Origin: a virus
Reading direction: 5' to 3' (one strand)
Virus record (IMG/VR): IMGVR_UViG_3300016486_001065
Span: 1-21,554 of that record
Length of the DNA stretch: 21,554 nucleotides
How positions within the stretch are numbered: the stretch's first letter is position 1; each line of letters begins with the position of its first letter. This document shows positions 1-19,978 of this stretch, one piece after another. The notes below the pieces were generated by a model. It worked only from the letters and a program-made list of their open reading frames with translations, ran no database searches and had not been told where the DNA came from. A program made the position numbers and the translations under genes.

Positions 1-330
1 GCGGCCGCGGCCTGTTTCCTGCGAACGCATGTCCGGTGGCGCGTGGCGCGTGATCCCCTGCTGCCTGCCCCGCGATCCGCGATCCGCGATCCGCGGTGCG
101 TGATCCCCGATCCCCCTGCCCGCTGCCCGCCCCTGGCGATCCCCCTGCCCGCTGCCCGCCCCTGGCGATCCCCCTGCCCGCTGCCCGCCCCTGGCGATCC
201 CCTGCCCTTGCCCGCCCCTGGCGATCCCCTGCCCTTGCCCGCCCCAGGCGATCCGCCCCGCGTGATCCGCGCTGCCTGCCCATGGCGCGTGGTGCCTGCC
301 TGGTGGCCGGTCCTGCCCTGCCCGCTGCCC

Positions 331-542
331 CAGGCGACATCGGATCCGCTGCCCGCTGCCCCAGGCGACATCGATCCGGTGCCCGGCCGCTGCCCCAGGC
401 GACATCGATCCGGTGCCCGGCCGCTGCCCGCTGCCCCAGGCGACATCGGATCCGCTGCCCGCTGCCCCAGGCGACATCGATCCGGTGCCCGGCCGCTGCC
501 CCAGGCGACATCGATCCGGTGCCCGGCCGCTGCCCGCTGCCC
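331..542. repeat. 106-bp perfect tandem duplication (higher-order repeat)
   Basis: Positions 331-436 and 437-542 read identically. Each 106-bp copy contains three CAGGCGACATCG cores spaced 31, 34 and 41 bp. A diverged partial copy follows at about 711-770. An exact higher-order duplication suggests recent unequal recombination or replication slippage. Confidence 0.9.
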
Positions 543-580
543 CAGGCGACATCGATCCGCCGGCCGCTGCCCGCTGCCCG

Positions 581-650
581 CTACCCGCTACCCGCTACCC
601 GCTACCCGCTACCCGCTACCCGCTACCCGCTACCCGCTACCCGCTACCCG
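581..650. repeat. Heptamer array (CTACCCG)x10
   Basis: Ten uninterrupted copies of CTACCCG occupy exactly 70 bp. The complementary strand reads (CGGGTAG)n, that is GGG runs separated by four bases, which meets the usual G-quadruplex pattern. The unit resembles a telomeric heptamer in form, but nothing else suggests a telomere. Two more isolated copies of the same unit occur near 990-1003. Confidence 0.95.
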
Positions 651-1073
651 CGATCCGCCGGCCGCTGCCCCAGGCGACATCGATCCGGTGGCCGGTCCTG
701 CCCGCTGCCCCAGGCGACATCGGATCCGCTGCCCGCTGCCCCAGGCGACATCGATCCGGTGGCCGGTCCTGCCCTGCCCGCTGCCCCATGCGACATCGGA
801 TCCGCTGCCCGCTGACCCCGCGATCCCCTGCCCGCTGCCCGCCCCTGGCGATCCCCTGCCCGCTGCCCGCCCCTGGCGATCCCCTGCCCGCTGCCCGCTG
901 GCGATCCCCTGCCCGCTGCGCCCGCGATCCCCTGCCCGCTGCCCGCTGCCCCAGGCGACATCGATCCGCTGCCCGCTGCCCGCTGCCCGCTACCCGCTAC
1001 CCGCGATCCGCCGGCCGCGCCCCGCCGCCCGGGCGACATCGATCCGCCGGCCGCGACCCGCGCGCCGCGTGTC

Positions 1074-1085
1074 TAGGGGCCCCTA
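1074..1085. repeat. 12-bp perfect palindrome TAGGGGCCCCTA
   Basis: A perfect palindrome at the boundary between the C-rich repeats and the more AT-rich control region. It could bind a dimeric protein or be a junction of repeat expansion. No family is recognised. Confidence 0.5.
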
Positions 1086-1134
1086 TGGCAATTGAGGCTA
1101 AACGGTCCGTAAGCCGCTGTTTTCGCTACGTTTT

Positions 1135-1147
1135 CCGCGGTCCGCGG
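1135..1147. repeat. Dispersed palindrome CCGCGGTCCGCGG
   Basis: A copy of the 11-bp CGCGGWCCGCG family, extended here to 13 bp. Other exact copies lie at 1240-1250, 3191-3201, 3285-3297, 5271-5281 and 6490-6500. The centre CGGWCCG is also the RsrII recognition sequence. Confidence 0.8.
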
Positions 1148-1158
1148 TGGGGGCCGAG

Positions 1159-1187
1159 GCGACGAGCGCATGGGCCATGTTCGTCGC
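1159..1187. other. Inverted repeat / hairpin in the control region
   Basis: GCGACGA (1159-1165) pairs with TCGTCGC (1181-1187), with an inner CATGG/CCATG pairing. A run of eight T starts about ten bases after the stem. That is too far for a standard intrinsic terminator, so I call it only a hairpin or dyad. Confidence 0.45.
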
Positions 1188-1218
1188 TAACAATCCTAAT
1201 TTTTTTTCGTTTGAGAAT

Positions 1219-1234
1219 TGTTTCACGTGAAACA
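1219..1234. promoter_or_regulatory. parS: parS-type centromere site, perfect 16-bp match
   Basis: The sequence reads TGTTTCACGTGAAACA, a perfect palindrome identical to the consensus bacterial chromosomal ParB-binding site (TGTTNCACGTGAAACA in Bacillus; the same form is used by Caulobacter and other Alphaproteobacteria). ParB loads at such sites as a CTP-dependent clamp and works with ParA in segregation. No parA or parB gene is in the window, so if functional it would recruit host ParB or a ParB encoded elsewhere on the phage. Only one copy is visible. The alternative is an unrelated dimeric regulator using the same CACGTG core. Confidence 0.8.
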
Positions 1235-1259: not shown

Positions 1260-1273
1260 TTTGTGATCACAAA
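1260..1273. promoter_or_regulatory. Palindromic operator TTTGTGATCACAAA, copy 1
   Basis: First of three identical 14-bp perfect palindromes in the 250 bp before the terminase gene (others at 1343-1356 and 1480-1493). The half-site TTTGTGA and the inner GATC suggest a dimeric helix-turn-helix regulator; the TTGT-N4-ACAA form would suit a GntR/FadR-type protein, but this is only a shape match. No regulator gene is in the window. Confidence 0.75.
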
Positions 1274-1329
1274 CCGTGCCCTTCTGATATTTTTTCGTGC
1301 AAAATCTGGGTGAGGGGCGGTTTTTGGCC

Positions 1330-1340
1330 CGCGATCCGCG
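1330..1340. repeat. CGCGATCCGCG variant of the dispersed palindrome
   Basis: This variant differs from CGCGGTCCGCG by one central base. The same variant is found in three overlapping copies at 71-95, at 5422-5432 and (13 bp, extended) at 15237-15249. It links the left-end repeats with the dispersed family. Confidence 0.6.
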
Positions 1341-1342
1341 AT

Positions 1343-1356
1343 TTTGTGATCACAAA
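1343..1356. promoter_or_regulatory. Palindromic operator TTTGTGATCACAAA, copy 2
   Basis: An exact copy 83 bp after the first. It lies next to the CGCGATCCGCG site at 1330-1340. Confidence 0.75.
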
Positions 1357-1382
1357 TGCTATTTGGGTCCCCTGTGCCCCCT

Positions 1383-1412
1383 AAAATATATATTTTTGAA
1401 ACCTGTGGATGG
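1383..1412. other. AT-only palindrome plus DnaA-box-like site
   Basis: AAAATATATATTTT (1383-1396) is a perfect 14-bp palindrome of only A and T in an otherwise GC-rich genome, a candidate easily melted segment. Eight bases downstream, TGTGGATGG (1404-1412) matches seven of nine positions of a reverse-oriented DnaA box (TGTGGATAA). One imperfect box is weak evidence, but the position beside parS fits an origin-like region. Confidence 0.35.
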
Positions 1413-1462
1413 GCTTGTTTTTGGGTGTATGGGGGGTGTATTTTGGGCATCGCATATTATCT

Positions 1463-1494
1463 TATAAAACAGAGGCTGTTTTGTGATCACAAAA
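1463..1494 (+). promoter_or_regulatory. Operator copy 3 with possible overlapping promoter of the terminase operon
   Basis: TTTTGTGATCACAAAA (1479-1494) is a 16-bp perfect palindrome containing the third operator core. Just upstream, TATAAA (1463-1468) could be a -10 element, which would put the transcription start near 1475 and the operator over it, the usual place for repression. No convincing -35 is present, so a phage or alternative sigma factor is possible. The operator lies 40 bp before the chosen terminase start. Confidence 0.5.
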
Positions 1495-4108: not shown

Positions 4109-6553
4109 ATGGCGCGAGCCCCGACTGCTTCTTTTGTTGAGCGCGAGAACGACGATCCGAACTTGGCGCAAGCCGAGATCGACCTTGATATCGCAATGCC
4201 TGGCGCCTTAATGGCGTCACGGGTGCCTTTTGTTGAGGGCATCGACATTGTTGAAGAGGACGATGGCGGCGTCACGGTTGATTTTGACCCCCAAGCCGAA
4301 GCTGGGGACGAAGGGGACTTTGGCAGAAACCTTGCTGAAGACTTGGACAACGGCGAGCTGGGAGCCACGGCAAGCGATCTGATGGCGCAGTACGACAGCG
4401 CCAAGGAAAGCCGCGGCGACTGGGAGCAGGAATACAGCAAGGGCTTGGAGCTTTTGGGCTTCAATTACCAAGAGCGCACGCAGCCATTCAAGGGCGCAAC
4501 GGGCGTCACGCACCCACTTTTGGCCGAGGCCGCCACGCAGTTTCAGGCGCAGGCGTTCAACGAGCTTTTGCCGGCGGAAGGCCCTGTCCGGACGCAGGTC
4601 ATGGGCGAGCTGACCAAGGAAAAGCAGGCGCAGAGCAAGCGCGTCAAAGATTTTATGAATTACTACCTGATGAACGAGGCGGAAGAGTACACGCCCGAGT
4701 TTGATCAGATGCTATTTTACCTGCCGCTGGCGGGATCGACGTTCAAAAAGGTGTATTTTGACTCCAACCTTGATCGGGTGGTCAGCAAGTTTGTGCCTGC
4801 CGAGAACCTTGTGGTGCCTTATGACGCGTCGGACTTGGAGACGTCGCCTTTTGTTGCCCAAATTATCCGCATGCCGTGGAACGATGTCCGAAAAATGCAG
4901 GTCTCCGGATTTTATCGGGACATCCCGCTGCACGCTTCGACGGCCAAACAGGACGACATTGCCGAGGTAGAGGACAAGATTTCGGGCACTTCGGCGTCGA
5001 TGATTGATTACGACATCACGCTTCTGGAGTTCCATGTCGACCTAGACCTGCCGGGCTACGAGGATATCGGGGAAGACGGAGAAGAGACCGGCATTCGCCT
5101 GCCTTACCTTGTGACGATTTGCGAAGACACCGGCGACGTGCTGTCGATCCGCCGCAATTACCGCGAGGACGACCCCAAGCGCACCAAGATCGGCTATTTC
5201 GTGCACTACAGGTTCCTGCCCGGCTTCGGCTTCTACGGGCTGGGCCTGATCCACACCATTGGCGGTTTGTCGCGGACCGCGACGGCCGCTTTGCGGCAGT
5301 TGATTGACGCCGGAACGCTGTCGAACCTGCCTGCGGGTTTCAAGGCCCGCGGACTGCGGATCAGGGACAACGACGAGCCTCTGCAGCCGGGAGAGTTCCG
5401 CGACGTGGACAGCCCGGGCGGCGCGATCCGCGACAGTTTGATGCCTTTGCCGTTCAAGGGGCCGGATGGCACGCTGTTCCAGCTTTTGGGATTTGTGGTC
5501 CAAGCGGGCCAGCGGTTTGCCACGATCACTGATTTGAAAGTGGGCGACGGCAACCAGCAGGCTGCGGTTGGCACGACGATTGCTATGATGGAGCAGGGCG
5601 CGCGGGTGATGAGCGCTGTTCACAAGCGCATGCACTACGCAATGCGGCGGGAGTTCAAGCTTCTGGCGCGCGTGATGAAGGAATCGCTGCCGCAGGAATA
5701 TCCTTATACGGTCGCTGGGGCGGATCAGACCATCATGGCGCAGGATTTTGACGATCGCGTGGACGTCATCCCTGTTTCCGACCCCAACATCTTCAGCCAG
5801 GCGCAGCGCATTGCTTTGGCACAGGCTCAGTTGCAGTTGGCGACGCAGGCGCCCGAAATGCACGATATGTACGAGGCGATGCACCGTATGTACGAGGCGC
5901 TTGGGGTGCGGGACATCGACAAGATCCTGAAGCCACAAGAAGAGCAAGAGGCGGCGCCGAAAGACCCCGCCACCGAGAACATTGACGCTCTGAATCAAGT
6001 GCAGATGCAGGCGTTTGAGGGCCAAAATCACGACGCCCACATCATGTCCCACCTGGTGTTTGGTGCTTCAGGGATTGTTGCGCAGGCTCCGATGATCGCA
6101 GTCGCCTTGCAAAAGCACATCATGGACCATGTACGGCTCAAAGCCGTACAAACGGTTATGGAGCAGGTGACGGAGATGATGCAGGGCCAAGAGATTACGC
6201 CTGAAATTGACGTTCAGGTGCAGGCTTTGGTCGCCCAGCAGATTGCCGAAGACTTGCAGGCTTTGCGGGAGTTGAACTCCCAGATCACCGGCGAGGCCGG
6301 GCAGCCTGATCCGTTGATCGCGCTGAAAGAGCAGGAGCTCCAAATGCGCTCGCAAAAGGATCAGGCGCAGATTGAGCTGGACCGCGACGAATTGGCGCTG
6401 GCCCAGCAAAAAGCGGAGCAGCGCGCGCAGGAGCAGGCCCAGCGCATGCAGCAGACACGCGAATTGACAATGGTCAAACTGCAGGCAACCGCGGACCGCG
6501 AACGTATGCGCGTTGCCGCGCAACTTCAAATGGCAAACCAAAGGAGACAGTGA
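4109..6553 (+). CDS. Portal protein (head-tail connector)
   Basis: The 814-residue protein forms the ring through which DNA enters and leaves the capsid. Large size, position between packaging and scaffold/capsid genes, and the stretch FKGATGVTHPLLAEAA (~127-142) followed by a portal-like helical core support a podovirus/P22-like portal family. Residues 1-80 are strongly acidic and probably disordered. The end (~730-814) is Gln/Glu/Arg-rich coiled coil, as expected for the barrel helix of long portals. The start is clear: AGGAGG lies 5 nt before ATG 4109. The stop overlaps the next start by one base (TGATG). A perfect 9-bp hairpin (6130-6150) and dispersed palindromes at 5271 and 6490 lie within the gene. 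Confidence 0.9.
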   Translation: MARAPTASFVERENDDPNLAQAEIDLDIAMPGALMASRVPFVEGIDIVEEDDGGVTVDFDPQAEAGDEGDFGRNLAEDLDNGELGATASDLMAQYDSAKESRGDWEQEYSKGLELLGFNYQERTQPFKGATGVTHPLLAEAATQFQAQAFNELLPAEGPVRTQVMGELTKEKQAQSKRVKDFMNYYLMNEAEEYTPEFDQMLFYLPLAGSTFKKVYFDSNLDRVVSKFVPAENLVVPYDASDLETSPFVAQIIRMPWNDVRKMQVSGFYRDIPLHASTAKQDDIAEVEDKISGTSASMIDYDITLLEFHVDLDLPGYEDIGEDGEETGIRLPYLVTICEDTGDVLSIRRNYREDDPKRTKIGYFVHYRFLPGFGFYGLGLIHTIGGLSRTATAALRQLIDAGTLSNLPAGFKARGLRIRDNDEPLQPGEFRDVDSPGGAIRDSLMPLPFKGPDGTLFQLLGFVVQAGQRFATITDLKVGDGNQQAAVGTTIAMMEQGARVMSAVHKRMHYAMRREFKLLARVMKESLPQEYPYTVAGADQTIMAQDFDDRVDVIPVSDPNIFSQAQRIALAQAQLQLATQAPEMHDMYEAMHRMYEALGVRDIDKILKPQEEQEAAPKDPATENIDALNQVQMQAFEGQNHDAHIMSHLVFGASGIVAQAPMIAVALQKHIMDHVRLKAVQTVMEQVTEMMQGQEITPEIDVQVQALVAQQIAEDLQALRELNSQITGEAGQPDPLIALKEQELQMRSQKDQAQIELDRDELALAQQKAEQRAQEQAQRMQQTRELTMVKLQATADRERMRVAAQLQMANQRRQ
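5271..5281. repeat. Dispersed palindrome CGCGGACCGCG
   Basis: An exact copy within the portal gene. The related CGCGATCCGCG variant follows at 5422-5432. Confidence 0.7.
6130..6150 (+). other. Perfect intragenic hairpin in the portal gene
   Basis: TGTACGGCT, loop CAA, AGCCGTACA: a 9-bp perfect stem with a 3-nt loop inside the coding sequence, with no T tract after it. It may slow ribosomes, mark an mRNA processing site or be chance. Confidence 0.5.
6490..6500. repeat. Dispersed palindrome CGCGGACCGCG
   Basis: An exact copy near the end of the portal gene, where it encodes part of TADRE in the C-terminal coiled coil. Confidence 0.7.
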
Positions 6554-6759
6554 TGGACAGAAAAGTGAATTACATGGGCGCAGCCCCTGGCAAGACCGCT
6601 GCGGCTTCTAAAAAGGCCGTAATCGCGGGCCAGGGCAGCATCCCGTACAGCGATGTCAAGGATATTGCGACGCCCAACACCGCGAAAGGTTCGTCCACGA
6701 CGGGTCAAAAGCGCGGTATGGGCGCGGCTTTGCGCGGCGGGAAGTTTTCGTCGAAATAA
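6553..6759 (+). CDS. Small basic hypothetical protein
   Basis: A 68-residue protein rich in Lys, Gly, Ser and Ala, ending in a basic GMGAALRGGKFSSK tail. ATG 6553 overlaps the portal stop by one base and has AGGAG six bases upstream. A GTG at 6550 is in frame but less likely. The composition suggests a nucleic-acid or capsid-lumen contact, but no family is recognised. Translational coupling to the portal is likely. Confidence 0.75.
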   Translation: MDRKVNYMGAAPGKTAAASKKAVIAGQGSIPYSDVKDIATPNTAKGSSTTGQKRGMGAALRGGKFSSK

Positions 6760-6803
6760 AAGCGCAGCCTAAAATGGCTGGTCACGCCATATACGACAGG
6801 CTA

Positions 6804-6809
6804 TATAAT
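6804..6809 (+). promoter_or_regulatory. TATAAT -10-like element directly before a start codon
   Basis: A perfect TATAAT in an AT-rich patch (TATATAAT, 6802-6809) lies five bases before ATG 6815. A start of transcription the usual ~7 nt downstream would fall on or at the ATG, giving a leaderless message. The -35 region is poor (TGGTCA at 6779 with a 19-nt spacer). Confidence 0.4.
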
Positions 6810-6814
6810 ATCGC

Positions 6815-7012
6815 ATGGAAGAACTAGGCATAGTACAATTTGTGCAGCGCTCCATCAAGGAGCGCCGCACGATGGTTTTGGATACCCTTGAGAACAATGG
6901 TATCCGAACAATGGAGCAGTATCAGCTCTGCATGGGCGAATTAAACGCCCTCAATTTCGTAGCTCAGGAACTCTCGGGCCTGCTAGATAAACAGGAGCTC
7001 AAAAATGACTGA
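6815..7012 (+). CDS. Small hypothetical protein
   Basis: A 65-residue, mostly helical protein (MEELGIVQFVQRSIKERRTM onward) with no recognised domain. No Shine-Dalgarno is visible: the ATG follows a TATAAT box, so it may be translated from a leaderless message. It overlaps the GroES-like gene by eight bases (ATGACTGA). Size and position suggest an accessory to head assembly, without direct support. Confidence 0.75.
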   Translation: MEELGIVQFVQRSIKERRTMVLDTLENNGIRTMEQYQLCMGELNALNFVAQELSGLLDKQELKND

Positions 7013-7454
7013 ATCAGTCACATCTTCCATCGACATCTCGGCCGCGCAAGCAACGATGGCGTCGATGTATGTCCCCCCAGAGGACAGGGTCTTGGACCCG
7101 ACAAAAGCCGATCAATCCATTTTGGACCGCATGCCGCAGCCCACGGGCTGGCGTATGCTGATTTTGCCGTATCGCGGCAAATCCAAAACAGCCGGAGGGC
7201 TGCATCTTCCTGACAAGGTTGTCGAGGATGGGCAGCTCAGCACGGTTGTCGGATACGTGATGAAGCAGGGGCCGTTGTGCTACCAGGACGAAGCGAAGTT
7301 TCCCGCAGGTGCATGGTGCAAGACAGGCGACTGGGTAATTTTTGCGCGCTACGCGGGATCACGGTTCCGCATAGATGGCGGGGAAGTCCGTATCTTGAAC
7401 GACGACGAAATCCTTGCCGTGATCGGCGATCCAGAAGACATTTTAAGCCTGTAA
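7005..7454 (+). CDS. GroES-like co-chaperonin (Cpn10)
   Basis: A 149-residue protein likely to cap the host GroEL chamber and help fold the capsid protein, as T4 gp31 does. The Cpn10 core starts near residue 46 with PTGWRMLILPYRG. A mobile-loop-like GKSKTAGGLHLPDKVVEDGQ follows at 58-77, matching the KSxGGIxL region of GroES. After it come VVGYVMKQG, a KTGDWVIFARYAGSRF segment and an ILNDDEILAVI end, the typical GroES order. It is longer than cellular GroES (~95 residues) because of a ~45-residue N-terminal extension. It lies between the portal and scaffold genes, which fits a capsid-folding role. I expect GroEL to be supplied by the host. Confidence 0.85.
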   Translation: MTESVTSSIDISAAQATMASMYVPPEDRVLDPTKADQSILDRMPQPTGWRMLILPYRGKSKTAGGLHLPDKVVEDGQLSTVVGYVMKQGPLCYQDEAKFPAGAWCKTGDWVIFARYAGSRFRIDGGEVRILNDDEILAVIGDPEDILSL

Positions 7455-7467
7455 GGGGGACAAGACC

Positions 7468-8391
7468 ATGAGTGCGACAGAAAACACGTTTGGGTCAGCG
7501 GATGACTTGGACATCGAAATGGACGAGCAAGAGGCGGCAGAAGTAGAAATTGCAGCGTCGGACAAAGACGTCGCGGACAGCGAGTCTAACGAGCAAGAGG
7601 ATTATCAGGGGGCTGCGCAAAAGCGGATCAACCGCCTGACCAAGAAAATGCGCGACGCCGAGCGGCGCGAGCAGGAAGCCCTGCGGTATGCGCAGCAAGT
7701 GACGCATGAAACGCATACGCTTCAGGCGCGCATGAAGCAGCTCGACACCGGCTATATGCAAGAATATGGCGGCCGCCTAGAGATCGAAACAAAGACCGCG
7801 GAAAGCGCTTTGAAGCGCGCGGTCGAAATGGGCGACTCTGACGGCGTCATCGAGAACCAGCGGCGCCTCAACCAGCTTTACTCTGCCGCGGAAAAGTACC
7901 GCGAGGCAAAGCGCGGGCAGGAAATGCGTGAGCAGCAAGCCACGCAGCAGGCCGCGCCGCAATATGCCCCGCAGCAGCAGTACGCACCGCAGCAGCAGCC
8001 ACAACAGCAGAAGATTATCCGCCCGGACCCTAAAGCGGAGTCTTGGGCGGAAAGGAACACGTGGTTCGGCCAAGACGAGGCCATGACTTTTGCCGCCTTC
8101 GGAATACACAAAAAGCTCATTGAAGATGAAGGGTTTGACCCGGAGGCCGATGAGTACTATAGTGAGCTCGATCAGCGGCTCCGAAAACGCTTCCCACAAG
8201 AGTTTTCGTCGGCCCCTGCAAACGATTCGGGTGCCAGTCGCCGTCCCGTCCAGGCGGTAGCTGGTGTGTCCCGCACAAACGGTAATACGTCTGGACGCAG
8301 TAAAAAGGTTCGTCTCACCCCGACCGAAGTCGCCATTGCGAAAAAATTGGGTGTGCCGCTTGAAGAATATGCGAAATACGTGAAGAGGTAA
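7468..8391 (+). CDS. Head scaffolding protein
   Basis: A 307-residue protein likely to shape the prohead and leave before maturation. It has an acidic N-terminus (1-45), a Lys/Glu/Arg-rich helical middle (45-155), a Gln/Pro/Ala-rich linker (~155-180) and a C-terminal module with RPDPKAESWAERNTWFGQDE, a conserved-looking motif of phage scaffolds, ending in a basic helix (VRLTPTEVAIAKKLGVP). Charged, helical and low in aromatic residues, it lies three genes before the capsid gene, the normal place for a scaffold. GGGGGA precedes ATG 7468 by about 9 nt. Confidence 0.8.
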   Translation: MSATENTFGSADDLDIEMDEQEAAEVEIAASDKDVADSESNEQEDYQGAAQKRINRLTKKMRDAERREQEALRYAQQVTHETHTLQARMKQLDTGYMQEYGGRLEIETKTAESALKRAVEMGDSDGVIENQRRLNQLYSAAEKYREAKRGQEMREQQATQQAAPQYAPQQQYAPQQQPQQQKIIRPDPKAESWAERNTWFGQDEAMTFAAFGIHKKLIEDEGFDPEADEYYSELDQRLRKRFPQEFSSAPANDSGASRRPVQAVAGVSRTNGNTSGRSKKVRLTPTEVAIAKKLGVPLEEYAKYVKR

Positions 8392-17419: not shown

Positions 17420-19978
17420 ATGTCCAGTACGTTTACAAGCAATACCGGCATTGAAAAGATTGCCGACGGCGAACAGAGCGGCCTGTGGGGACAAACCACG
17501 AACCTGAACCTAGACATTGTGGACCGTTCTTTGAACGGGTCGTCGGACATTGTTTTGTCCGGCACGACGCACACGCTGACGACGTCCAACGGGGTTTTGT
17601 CCGACGGTCAATTCGCAGTGCTGGTGTTTACGGGCACTCCGAGCGGCACGAACACTGTTTCGATTGAGCCGAACACGGCGCAAAAGCTGTATTTTGTACG
17701 CAACAGCACTGCGCAAACCGTTATTTTGTCGCAGGGCTCGGGCGCCACGGTCAGCATTGCGCCAAGCACCTCGCGTGTGGTGTTTACGAACGGTGGCGGT
17801 GTTGGCGCTGCGGTGTCCGACATTACGAACACCTTGGCGATGGGCAGCGTTGCTATTTCTGGCGGCACGATCGACGGCACAACGGTTGGTGCGACAACAG
17901 CTTCGAGCGGTGCTTTCACCACTTTGACGGCGTCGTCCACGGCTACGCTGAACACTCTCTCCAGCTCTGGCGCCACCATCACGGGCGGCACGGTCAACGG
18001 CACGGTCATCGGCGGCGTTTCGGCGGCCGCGGGCACGTTTACAACTGCCACTGCCACCACAGGCAACATCACCACGGTCAACGCCACGACTGTAGACACC
18101 ACCAACCTTGAGGTCACGAACATCAAGGCCAAGGACGGCACGGCGTCTGCCACGATTGCCAACAGCACTGGCGTGCTGACGGTGGCCTCGTCTGTTTTGA
18201 CCACAACCGACATCAACGGCGGCACGATCGACGGCGCGACCATCGGCGGAGCGAGTGCCGCGGCCGGCACGTTCACGAACCTCGAGGCCAACGGCACGAT
18301 CAAGCTGGACGGGGATTATCCTGTTGGCACGTCGAACGTGGCATTAGGTGCTTTTTCTCTTATTGGCAACACCACGGGCTCCAACAACACAGCCTCGGGG
18401 TCCTGCGCCCTCTGCAGCAACACCACGGGCACCAGCAACACAGCCTCGGGGTCCAGCGCCCTCTGCAGCAACACCACGGGCAGCAGCAACACCGCCTCCG
18501 GCATCAGCGCCCTCTGCAGCAACACCACGGGCTCCAGCAACACCGCCTCGGGGTCCTACGCCCTTCGCAGCAACACCACGGGCGGTAGCAACACCGCCTC
18601 GGGGTCCAGCGCCCTTCTGCAGCAACACCACGGGCTCCAACAACACAGCCTCGGCCTCAAGCGCCCTCTGCAGCAACACCACGGGCTCCAACAACACCGC
18701 CTCCGGCCTCAACGCCCTCTGCAGCAACACCACGGGCGGTACAACACAGCATCCGGCATCCGCGCCCTCGCAGCCACACGGGATCAACACCACGGCGGCC
18801 TCAACACCGCCTCGGGGTCCTGCGCCCTTCGCAGCAACACCACGGGCTCCAACAACACCGCCTCCGGCCTCAACGCCCTTCGCAGCAACACCACGGGCGG
18901 CAGCAACACAGCCTCGGGGTCCTGCGCCCTCTTCAGCAACACCACGGGCGGCAGCAACACCGCCTCCGGCCTCAACGCCCTTCGCTGCAACACCACGGGC
19001 GGCAGCAACACCGCCTCCGGCCTCAACGCCCTCTTCAGCAACACCACGGGCGGCAGCAACACAGCCTCGGGGTCCTGCGCCCTCTTCAGCAACACCACGG
19101 GCTCCAACAACACAGCCTCGGGGTCCAGCGCCCTTCGCTGCAACACCACGGGCGGCAGCAACACCGCCTCGGGGTCCAGCGCCCTCTTCAGCAACACCAC
19201 GGGCGGCAGCAACACCGCCTCGGGGTCCAGCGCCCTTCGCTGCAACACCACGGGCGGCAGCAACACCGCCTCGGGGTCCTACGCCCTCTGCAGCAACACC
19301 ACGGGCTCCAACAACACCGCCTCCGGCCTCAGCGCCCTTCGCTGCAACACCACGGGCTCCGGCAACACAGCCTCGGGGTCCAACGCCCTCTGCAGCAACA
19401 CCACGGGCGGCAGCAACACAGCCTCGGGGTCCTACGCCCTCTGCAGCAACACCACGGGCATTAACAACACAGCCTCCGGCCTCAGCGCCCTCTTCAGCAA
19501 CACCACGGGCGTTAACAACATCGGCATCGGCGTTAACGCAGGCCGCACTGGTTCTACCCCCGCGGGCATCTGCAACATCACCACCGAGAGCGACTACATC
19601 GTCATGGGCAACGACGCCCATACCTGCGCTCTCATCAAGGTGGCGTGGACCGCGACATCTGACTGCCGGGACAAGACCTGCTTCAAGCCGCTCGATCACG
19701 GGCTGGACTTTGTGCGCGCCCTCAAGCCCACCGAGTATCAGTTCAAGAAGGGTGGCCGCGACAGTGTGGAAACCGACGGCAAGCGCCGCTACGGCTTCTT
19801 GGCCCAAGACATCCTGCCGCTCGAAGGGGACGCCCCCGTCATCATTAGTGCCGACAACCCCGAAAAGCTGCAATATACTGAGTCTCACTTGATCCCAATT
19901 CTGGTCAAGGCCGTGCAGGAGTTGACCGCCGAGGTCGACCGTCTGCGCGCAGAGATGGAGGAACTCAAAAATGCTTAA
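17420..19978 (+). CDS. Tail fibre with YadA-head-like repeats and S74 chaperone domain
   Basis: An 852-residue host-recognition fibre. Residues 1-130 form a virion-attachment-type domain (SSTFTSNTGIEKIADGEQSG). Residues ~147-290 hold GGTIDGTxxGGxSAAAGTF-type repeats. Residues ~315-700 are about 22 units of a 17-residue SNTTGxxNTASGxxAL repeat, as in trimeric adhesin heads. The end is an S74 intramolecular chaperone: TSDCRDKTCFKPLDHG with the catalytic Ser747-Asp748, then GFLAQDILPL and a C-terminal coiled coil (829-852). Self-cleavage before Ser747 is expected, leaving a mature trimer. Residues ~399-440 are read in a shifted frame (Gln/His-rich) between a +1 and a -1 change. Several repeats carry Cys (SCALCS), unusual for a fibre. 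GAGGAG precedes ATG 17420. Confidence 0.92.
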   Translation: MSSTFTSNTGIEKIADGEQSGLWGQTTNLNLDIVDRSLNGSSDIVLSGTTHTLTTSNGVLSDGQFAVLVFTGTPSGTNTVSIEPNTAQKLYFVRNSTAQTVILSQGSGATVSIAPSTSRVVFTNGGGVGAAVSDITNTLAMGSVAISGGTIDGTTVGATTASSGAFTTLTASSTATLNTLSSSGATITGGTVNGTVIGGVSAAAGTFTTATATTGNITTVNATTVDTTNLEVTNIKAKDGTASATIANSTGVLTVASSVLTTTDINGGTIDGATIGGASAAAGTFTNLEANGTIKLDGDYPVGTSNVALGAFSLIGNTTGSNNTASGSCALCSNTTGTSNTASGSSALCSNTTGSSNTASGISALCSNTTGSSNTASGSYALRSNTTGGSNTASGSSALLQQHHGLQQHSLGLKRPLQQHHGLQQHRLRPQRPLQQHHGRYNTASGIRALAATRDQHHGGLNTASGSCALRSNTTGSNNTASGLNALRSNTTGGSNTASGSCALFSNTTGGSNTASGLNALRCNTTGGSNTASGLNALFSNTTGGSNTASGSCALFSNTTGSNNTASGSSALRCNTTGGSNTASGSSALFSNTTGGSNTASGSSALRCNTTGGSNTASGSYALCSNTTGSNNTASGLSALRCNTTGSGNTASGSNALCSNTTGGSNTASGSYALCSNTTGINNTASGLSALFSNTTGVNNIGIGVNAGRTGSTPAGICNITTESDYIVMGNDAHTCALIKVAWTATSDCRDKTCFKPLDHGLDFVRALKPTEYQFKKGGRDSVETDGKRRYGFLAQDILPLEGDAPVIISADNPEKLQYTESHLIPILVKAVQELTAEVDRLRAEMEELKNA
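18364..19510 (+). repeat. 51-bp tandem repeat array in the fibre gene
   Basis: About 22 units of a 51-bp repeat with the core AACACCACGGGC. Units differ mainly at a few codons (TCC/GGC/AGC; TGC/CGC/TTC), giving a mosaic. Unit eight is badly degenerate (about 18735-18800). C-rich composition leaves a second + frame and an antisense frame open for the full length. Confidence 0.9.
18614..18741 (+). other. Frameshifted island within the fibre repeat array
   Basis: At 18614-18619 CCTTCTGC replaces CCTCTGC or CCTTCGC, one base extra. At ~18740 GGCGGTACAAC replaces GGCGGTAGCAAC, one base short. Between them the gene is read as Gln/His-rich sequence while the normal SNTTG motif continues in another frame. 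The reading frame is restored afterwards, so the fibre stays full length. Confidence 0.85.

What the first reader, a model, noticed from the sequence alone, without database searches (positions are those of the whole stretch)
1260..1494. Three identical 14-bp palindromes before the terminase operon, the third over the likely transcription start
TTTGTGATCACAAA occurs at 1260, 1343 and 1480 and I see it nowhere else. Spacing of 83 and 137 bp is near 8 and 13 helical turns. The third copy extends to 16 bp and covers an in-frame GTG start and the expected start of transcription. This looks like a multi-operator switch for late genes.
Basis: seen in the sequence. Interest (0 to 1): 0.68.

Follow-up and report, generated by a model that had tools for sequence, protein, structure and literature searches.

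The report
Shared phage operator beside borrowed parS
Three identical DNA palindromes before this marine phage's packaging genes belong to a binding site that unrelated marine phages carry in helix-spaced clusters and that host bacteria keep beside GntR-type regulator genes; a copy of the bacterial chromosome-segregation site parS lies next to them.

Summary
TTTGTGATCACAAA occurs at 1260, 1343 and 1480 and nowhere else in the 33,858-bp record. It is more than a local oddity. In IMG/VR the core TGTGATCACA recurs in clusters (56 of 111 distinct contigs, against 2 of 107 for a scrambled palindrome), with spacings at whole DNA turns (30-34, 39-46, 52-55, 62-65, 75, 97, 105 bp). Carriers include roseophages CRP-1, CRP-345 and CRP-603, in their early/late intergenic region. 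A diverged relative keeps four copies although its non-coding DNA is unalignable. Pairs of the same core occur in alphaproteobacterial chromosomes; 18 of 110 such loci have a GntR gene at the pair, and all five tested are GntR-FCD. No phage examined encodes a GntR domain. Best reading: a cooperative operator array at the terminase promoter, bound by a dimeric regulator of GntR/FCD specificity, possibly the host's own, probably as a repressor. The 'late switch' reading is plausible but unproven: promoter, regulator and sign are inferred. In most terminase relatives the motif is absent; the conserved element is a consensus parS (window 1219-1234), within 400 bp of terL in 40 of 61 distinct relatives, with no ParB-domain hit above cut-off in the 21 records searched.

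The parts
1260..1273 (.). operator copy 1, TTTGTGATCACAAA
1343..1356 (.). operator copy 2, 83 bp (about 8 turns) downstream of copy 1
1479..1494 (.). operator copy 3, 16-bp palindrome TTTTGTGATCACAAAA, 137 bp (13 turns) downstream of copy 2
1219..1234 (.). consensus parS, TGTTTCACGTGAAACA, 25 bp before copy 1
   Evidence: conserved before terL in 40 of 61 distinct relatives; consensus as used in PMC10197239
1455..1468 (+). tentative -10 region TATTATCTTATAAA of the terL promoter
   Evidence: comparative only: TCTTATA or near variants in the upstream 220 bp of 15 of 29 relatives, shuffles mean 1.8 and maximum 5; not detected by the consensus scan; CATAAA instead of TATAAA in L004
1534..2988 (+). 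terminase large subunit gene, first gene after the array
   Evidence: PHROG phrog_38, E 1.4e-106
1177..1230 (+). conserved short ORF start (M-F-V/L/F-T/A-N) upstream of parS in terL relatives; overlaps parS in the window

Best explanation
The palindromes are DNA-level operators, each binding one symmetric protein dimer. Several dimers on the same face of the helix act together, by direct contact or by looping across 8 and 13 turns, at the promoter of the terminase/late operon. The promoter-proximal copy lies just downstream of the presumed -10, and in the diverged relative G001 copies fall in the presumed promoter spacer, over the presumed start and up to the start codon, so repression is the likeliest sign. 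The recognition sequence matches operators of GntR-FCD regulators in alphaproteobacteria; since no GntR domain was found in the phages, a host GntR-FCD protein is the leading candidate. Shown: the sites, their clustering and phasing in other phages, retention in a diverged relative, the host GntR association, absence of a GntR hit in the phage records searched. Inferred: promoter position, sign of control, identity of the protein.
For: Exact triple and no other copy. Clustering 56/111 against 2/107 for a scrambled palindrome. Spacing resonance at 10.6 bp, R 0.65, 0 of 2000 jittered sets; spacing histogram peaks and empty troughs. Retained as four cores in G001 although the non-coding DNA aligns at 49% identity. 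Present in isolates CRP-1, CRP-2, CRP-345 and CRP-603 between divergent early and late modules. Host pairs beside GntR genes in 18 of 110 loci; five of five tested carry GntR and FCD domains. No PF00392 match in 27 phage records. A gapless perfect palindrome lacks the loop an RNA hairpin needs.
Against: No regulator is shown to bind. Host pair spacings (57-58, 21, 42, 50-54) overlap only partly with phage spacings. No sigma-70 promoter is found above chance. In HMO-2011-type phages the array lies nearer the early genes than terL. Two window spacings alone cannot prove phasing. The 84 and 150 spacings come from partly related contigs and are not fully independent. The 33.9-kb record and G001 are incomplete, so a regulator gene could lie outside them.
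Confidence: 0.5

Rival explanations
1. The operator is read by a phage-encoded regulator of an undescribed family, as in classical phage switches; similarity to host GntR operators is convergence.
For: In the isolates read, the array is in a phage control region. Most phage spacings (30-34) are uncommon among host GntR-linked pairs. Many early genes are of unknown function. A 68-109 aa family is among the few found in all four motif-positive and none of the three motif-negative HMO-2011-type genomes.
Against: No gene shared between the window-type and HMO-2011-type phages looks like a regulator; shared genes are lysis, structural and small late genes, DNA polymerase, and a GP88-family protein in HTVC027P and CRP-603. 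The 4-versus-3 correlation is weak and that small protein was not recognised as an HTH protein.
Confidence: 0.33
2. The array is a replication-origin or packaging-related element: phased dimer sites plus parS beside terL mark a DNA-handling locus rather than a transcription switch.
For: Proximity to terL, to parS and to low-complexity GC-rich repeats at 1-1080; in HMO-2011-type genomes the array sits in one long intergenic region.
Against: The same core in bacteria lies at gene starts beside GntR genes. Copies overlap the presumed terL promoter in window and G001. Number and spacing vary widely, and most terL relatives lack it.
Confidence: 0.12
3. The three copies are coincidental or duplicated sequence without function.
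For: Absent from most terL relatives.
Against: Flanks of the copies are unrelated; the copies are exact; retention in G001 despite unalignable DNA; strong clustering and phasing elsewhere.
Confidence: 0.03

Closest known systems
Operators of GntR-family FCD (FadR-subfamily) regulators in alphaproteobacteria
   Same: Identical 10-bp core in closely spaced pairs, next to GntR-FCD genes and often aminotransferase or oxidoreductase genes.
   Different: Here the sites stand before a phage terminase operon with no GntR gene found in the phage; spacings differ in part.
Multi-operator phage switches (lambda/434/P22 type)
   Same: Several palindromic dimer sites in a phage control region, helically phased, at a presumed promoter.
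   Different: No cognate phage repressor gene found; the array precedes terL in the window; no lysogeny genes identified in the window.
Chromosomal parS sites (ParABS)
   Same: Exact 16-bp consensus.
   Different: In a phage, before terL, with no ParB_N match above cut-off in the records searched; function unknown.

Membership tests
GntR-FCD operator | core sequence shared with sites at GntR-FCD genes | tested here: met
GntR-FCD operator | GntR gene encoded with the sites | tested here: not met
   no PF00392 match in 27 phage records, the window's included
GntR-FCD operator | binding of a GntR-FCD protein to the site | not testable with these tools
   needs a binding assay
Phage multi-operator switch | several copies of one dimer site in a control region on one helix face | tested here: met
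   phasing is established from other phages, the window's 83 and 137 bp agree
Phage multi-operator switch | cognate phage repressor or activator gene | tested here: inconclusive
   none recognised; records incomplete
Phage multi-operator switch | operators overlap a promoter | tested here: inconclusive
   comparative -10-like element only
parS | 16-bp consensus TGTTTCACGTGAAACA | tested here: met
   consensus in PMC10197239
parS | cognate ParB encoded by the element | tested here: not met
   PF02195: none over cut-off in 21 records, one weak sub-threshold hit in G002

The most novel reading that the evidence does not exclude
Abundant marine phages of unrelated groups control key operons with host DNA-binding proteins instead of their own: a host GntR-FCD metabolic regulator reads a helically phased operator array, and host ParB reads a conserved parS before terL, tying phage gene expression or DNA positioning to host metabolism and the cell cycle.
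Probability: 0.25. Interest if true: 0.8.

Novelty: new variant of a known kind. Interest (0 to 1): 0.6.

Why it matters
Little is known about transcriptional control in the abundant phages of marine alphaproteobacteria. A recurrent operator with a defined sequence and spacing rule gives a direct handle on the regulator, and its match to host GntR-FCD operators makes host-dependent control testable. A conserved host parS before terL in dozens of phage contigs is unexpected, and I found no report of it in the papers searched.

Tried and rejected
Rfam and ARAGORN on the window and relatives for an RNA element or tmRNA, because the upstream box resembles a tmRNA resume site: nothing. ParB encoded in the phages as reader of the palindrome or parS: no hit over cut-off. 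GntR encoded in the phages: none. Regulator genes upstream of terL in G001 by Pfam and PHROGs: only a small terminase subunit, a beta-clamp-like protein and unknowns. Presence/absence comparison of CRP phages: only a weak small-protein candidate. Literature search for TTGTGATCACAA and TGTGATCACA: no relevant regulator paper. RNA hairpin rejected because the palindrome has no loop.

Full report
OBSERVATION. TTTGTGATCACAAA is at 1260, 1343 and 1480 with no further copy in the window at up to 3 mismatches and no further exact copy in the 33,858-bp record. It is the only palindromic 14-mer repeated there apart from N runs. The third copy is a 16-bp palindrome at 1479-1494. The in-frame GTG at 1483 exists, but terL most likely starts at ATG 1534.

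CONTEXT. The gene at 1534-2988 is a terminase large subunit, about 62% identical to that of pelagiphage HTVC027P. Portal and major head protein genes follow. Several small late genes are 57-71% identical to genes of roseophages CRP-1 and CRP-603, which points to an alphaproteobacterial, perhaps Rhodobacterales, host; this is inference.

CONSERVATION AMONG TERMINASE RELATIVES. Of 61 distinct relatives with at least 400 bp upstream, only two (L004 and L005) carry TGTGATCACA there. L004 is nearly the same phage (97% identical in this region). L005, contig G001, has 86% identical TerL; its non-coding DNA aligns to the window at only 49% identity yet keeps four cores between parS and terL, at spacings of 136, 20 and 23 bp. 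Its last three copies surround a TATAAA and reach the terL start codon.

RECURRENCE IN OTHER PHAGES. Of 111 distinct stretches, 56 have at least two cores within 200 bp; a scrambled palindrome of the same composition gives 2 of 107. Spacings concentrate at 30-34, 39-46, 52-55, 62-65, 75, 97 and 105 bp with empty troughs between. The best period on the first set is 10.6 bp with R 0.65, not reached in 2000 jittered sets. On the set limited to 28-58 bp the best-fitting period is 11.35 bp (R 0.67; uniform null maximum 0.33), because the first three peaks lie slightly further apart than 10.5 bp; the longer spacings fit 10.5-10.8. The contigs are partly related, so the counts are not independent events. 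The window's 83 and 137 bp are 7.9 and 13.05 turns of 10.5 bp. Carriers include HMO-2011-type roseophages (CRP-1, CRP-2, CRP-345, CRP-603) with the sites 240-450 bp from the genome end, between divergent early and late modules, and a group with a different terminase. HMO-2011, CRP-9 and CRP-207 lack it.

HOST LINK. Pairs of the core 28-58 bp apart occur at 110 places in GTDB genomes, dominated by alphaproteobacteria. Eighteen of the 110 have a GntR-like gene starting within -150 to +400 bp of the pair and pointing away from it; five tested proteins all carry GntR and FCD domains. Other neighbours are aminotransferases, FAD oxidoreductases and the like. This identifies the core as an operator type of GntR-FCD regulators in these bacteria, by association only. 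No GntR domain was found in 27 phage records. Marine Rhodobacteraceae contig L253 has such a gene with a pair spaced 52 bp, which is also a phage spacing.

PROMOTER. The consensus scan gives no promoter above chance upstream of terL. Comparative evidence suggests a -10 region at 1455-1468: TCTTATA and near variants occur upstream of terL in 15 of 29 relatives against a shuffle mean of 1.8. L004 has one change in it. The third palindrome would lie just downstream of the start. This step is inferred.

PARS. TGTTTCACGTGAAACA at 1219-1234 is the parS consensus (PMC10197239). A perfect or Y/R variant lies within 400 bp of terL in 40 of 61 distinct relatives; a control palindrome is in none. Twelve of 21 records searched have the site with at most one mismatch, while ParB_N gives no hit over its cut-off. 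In HTVC027P a one-mismatch copy is intergenic. Thirty-one of 118 IMG/VR stretches with the exact 16-mer carry this terminase family. It is probably bound by host ParB (inference); its role is unknown.

CONCLUSION. The palindromes are a genuine operator array of a recurrent marine-phage type whose sequence matches host GntR-FCD operators. Control of the terminase/late operon, probably negative, is the best-supported reading. Whether the protein is the host's or the phage's is open.

Noticed in passing
window 1219-1234: Exact chromosomal parS consensus 25 bp before the first operator; conserved before terL in 40 of 61 distinct relatives, often paired with TGTTCCACGTGGAACA 24 bp away, without an encoded ParB found.
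   Followed up: partly
window 1110-1195; L006-L083 upstream of terL: Two conserved boxes upstream of parS: AATTGAGGCTAAA-like, and a short ORF start ATGTTYSTSRCWAAYAWT (MF[VLF][TA]N) whose variation lies mostly at third codon positions; no Rfam match.
   Followed up: partly
window 1-1080: About 1 kb of GC-rich imperfect tandem repeats (CTGCCCGCTGCCC, GCGATCC and similar) at the contig end; a comparable GC-rich repeat tract lies before terL in G001.
   Followed up: no
L007 and L008, last 200 bp before terL: Other relatives carry a different repeated site at the same place (TTTGCAA repeats spaced about one turn), as if operator specificity is exchanged between clades.
   Followed up: no
L220 (G001, reverse strand) 6300-8100: A repeated GC-rich element (GGCAGGGCAATCCCGCCC-like) followed by T-rich sequence precedes several consecutive small genes, possibly attenuator-like.
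   Followed up: no
L350:503-1243 (CRP-603 gp02) and L206:16172-16771 (HTVC027P gp33): A GP88-family (PF17338) gene near the control region in both phage groups; early-to-middle expressed in HTVC027P according to PMC12753301.
   Followed up: partly
window 18300-19500: Highly repetitive tail-fibre-like gene (SNTTGSNNTASGSxAL repeats) with related sequence in CRP-1.
   Followed up: no
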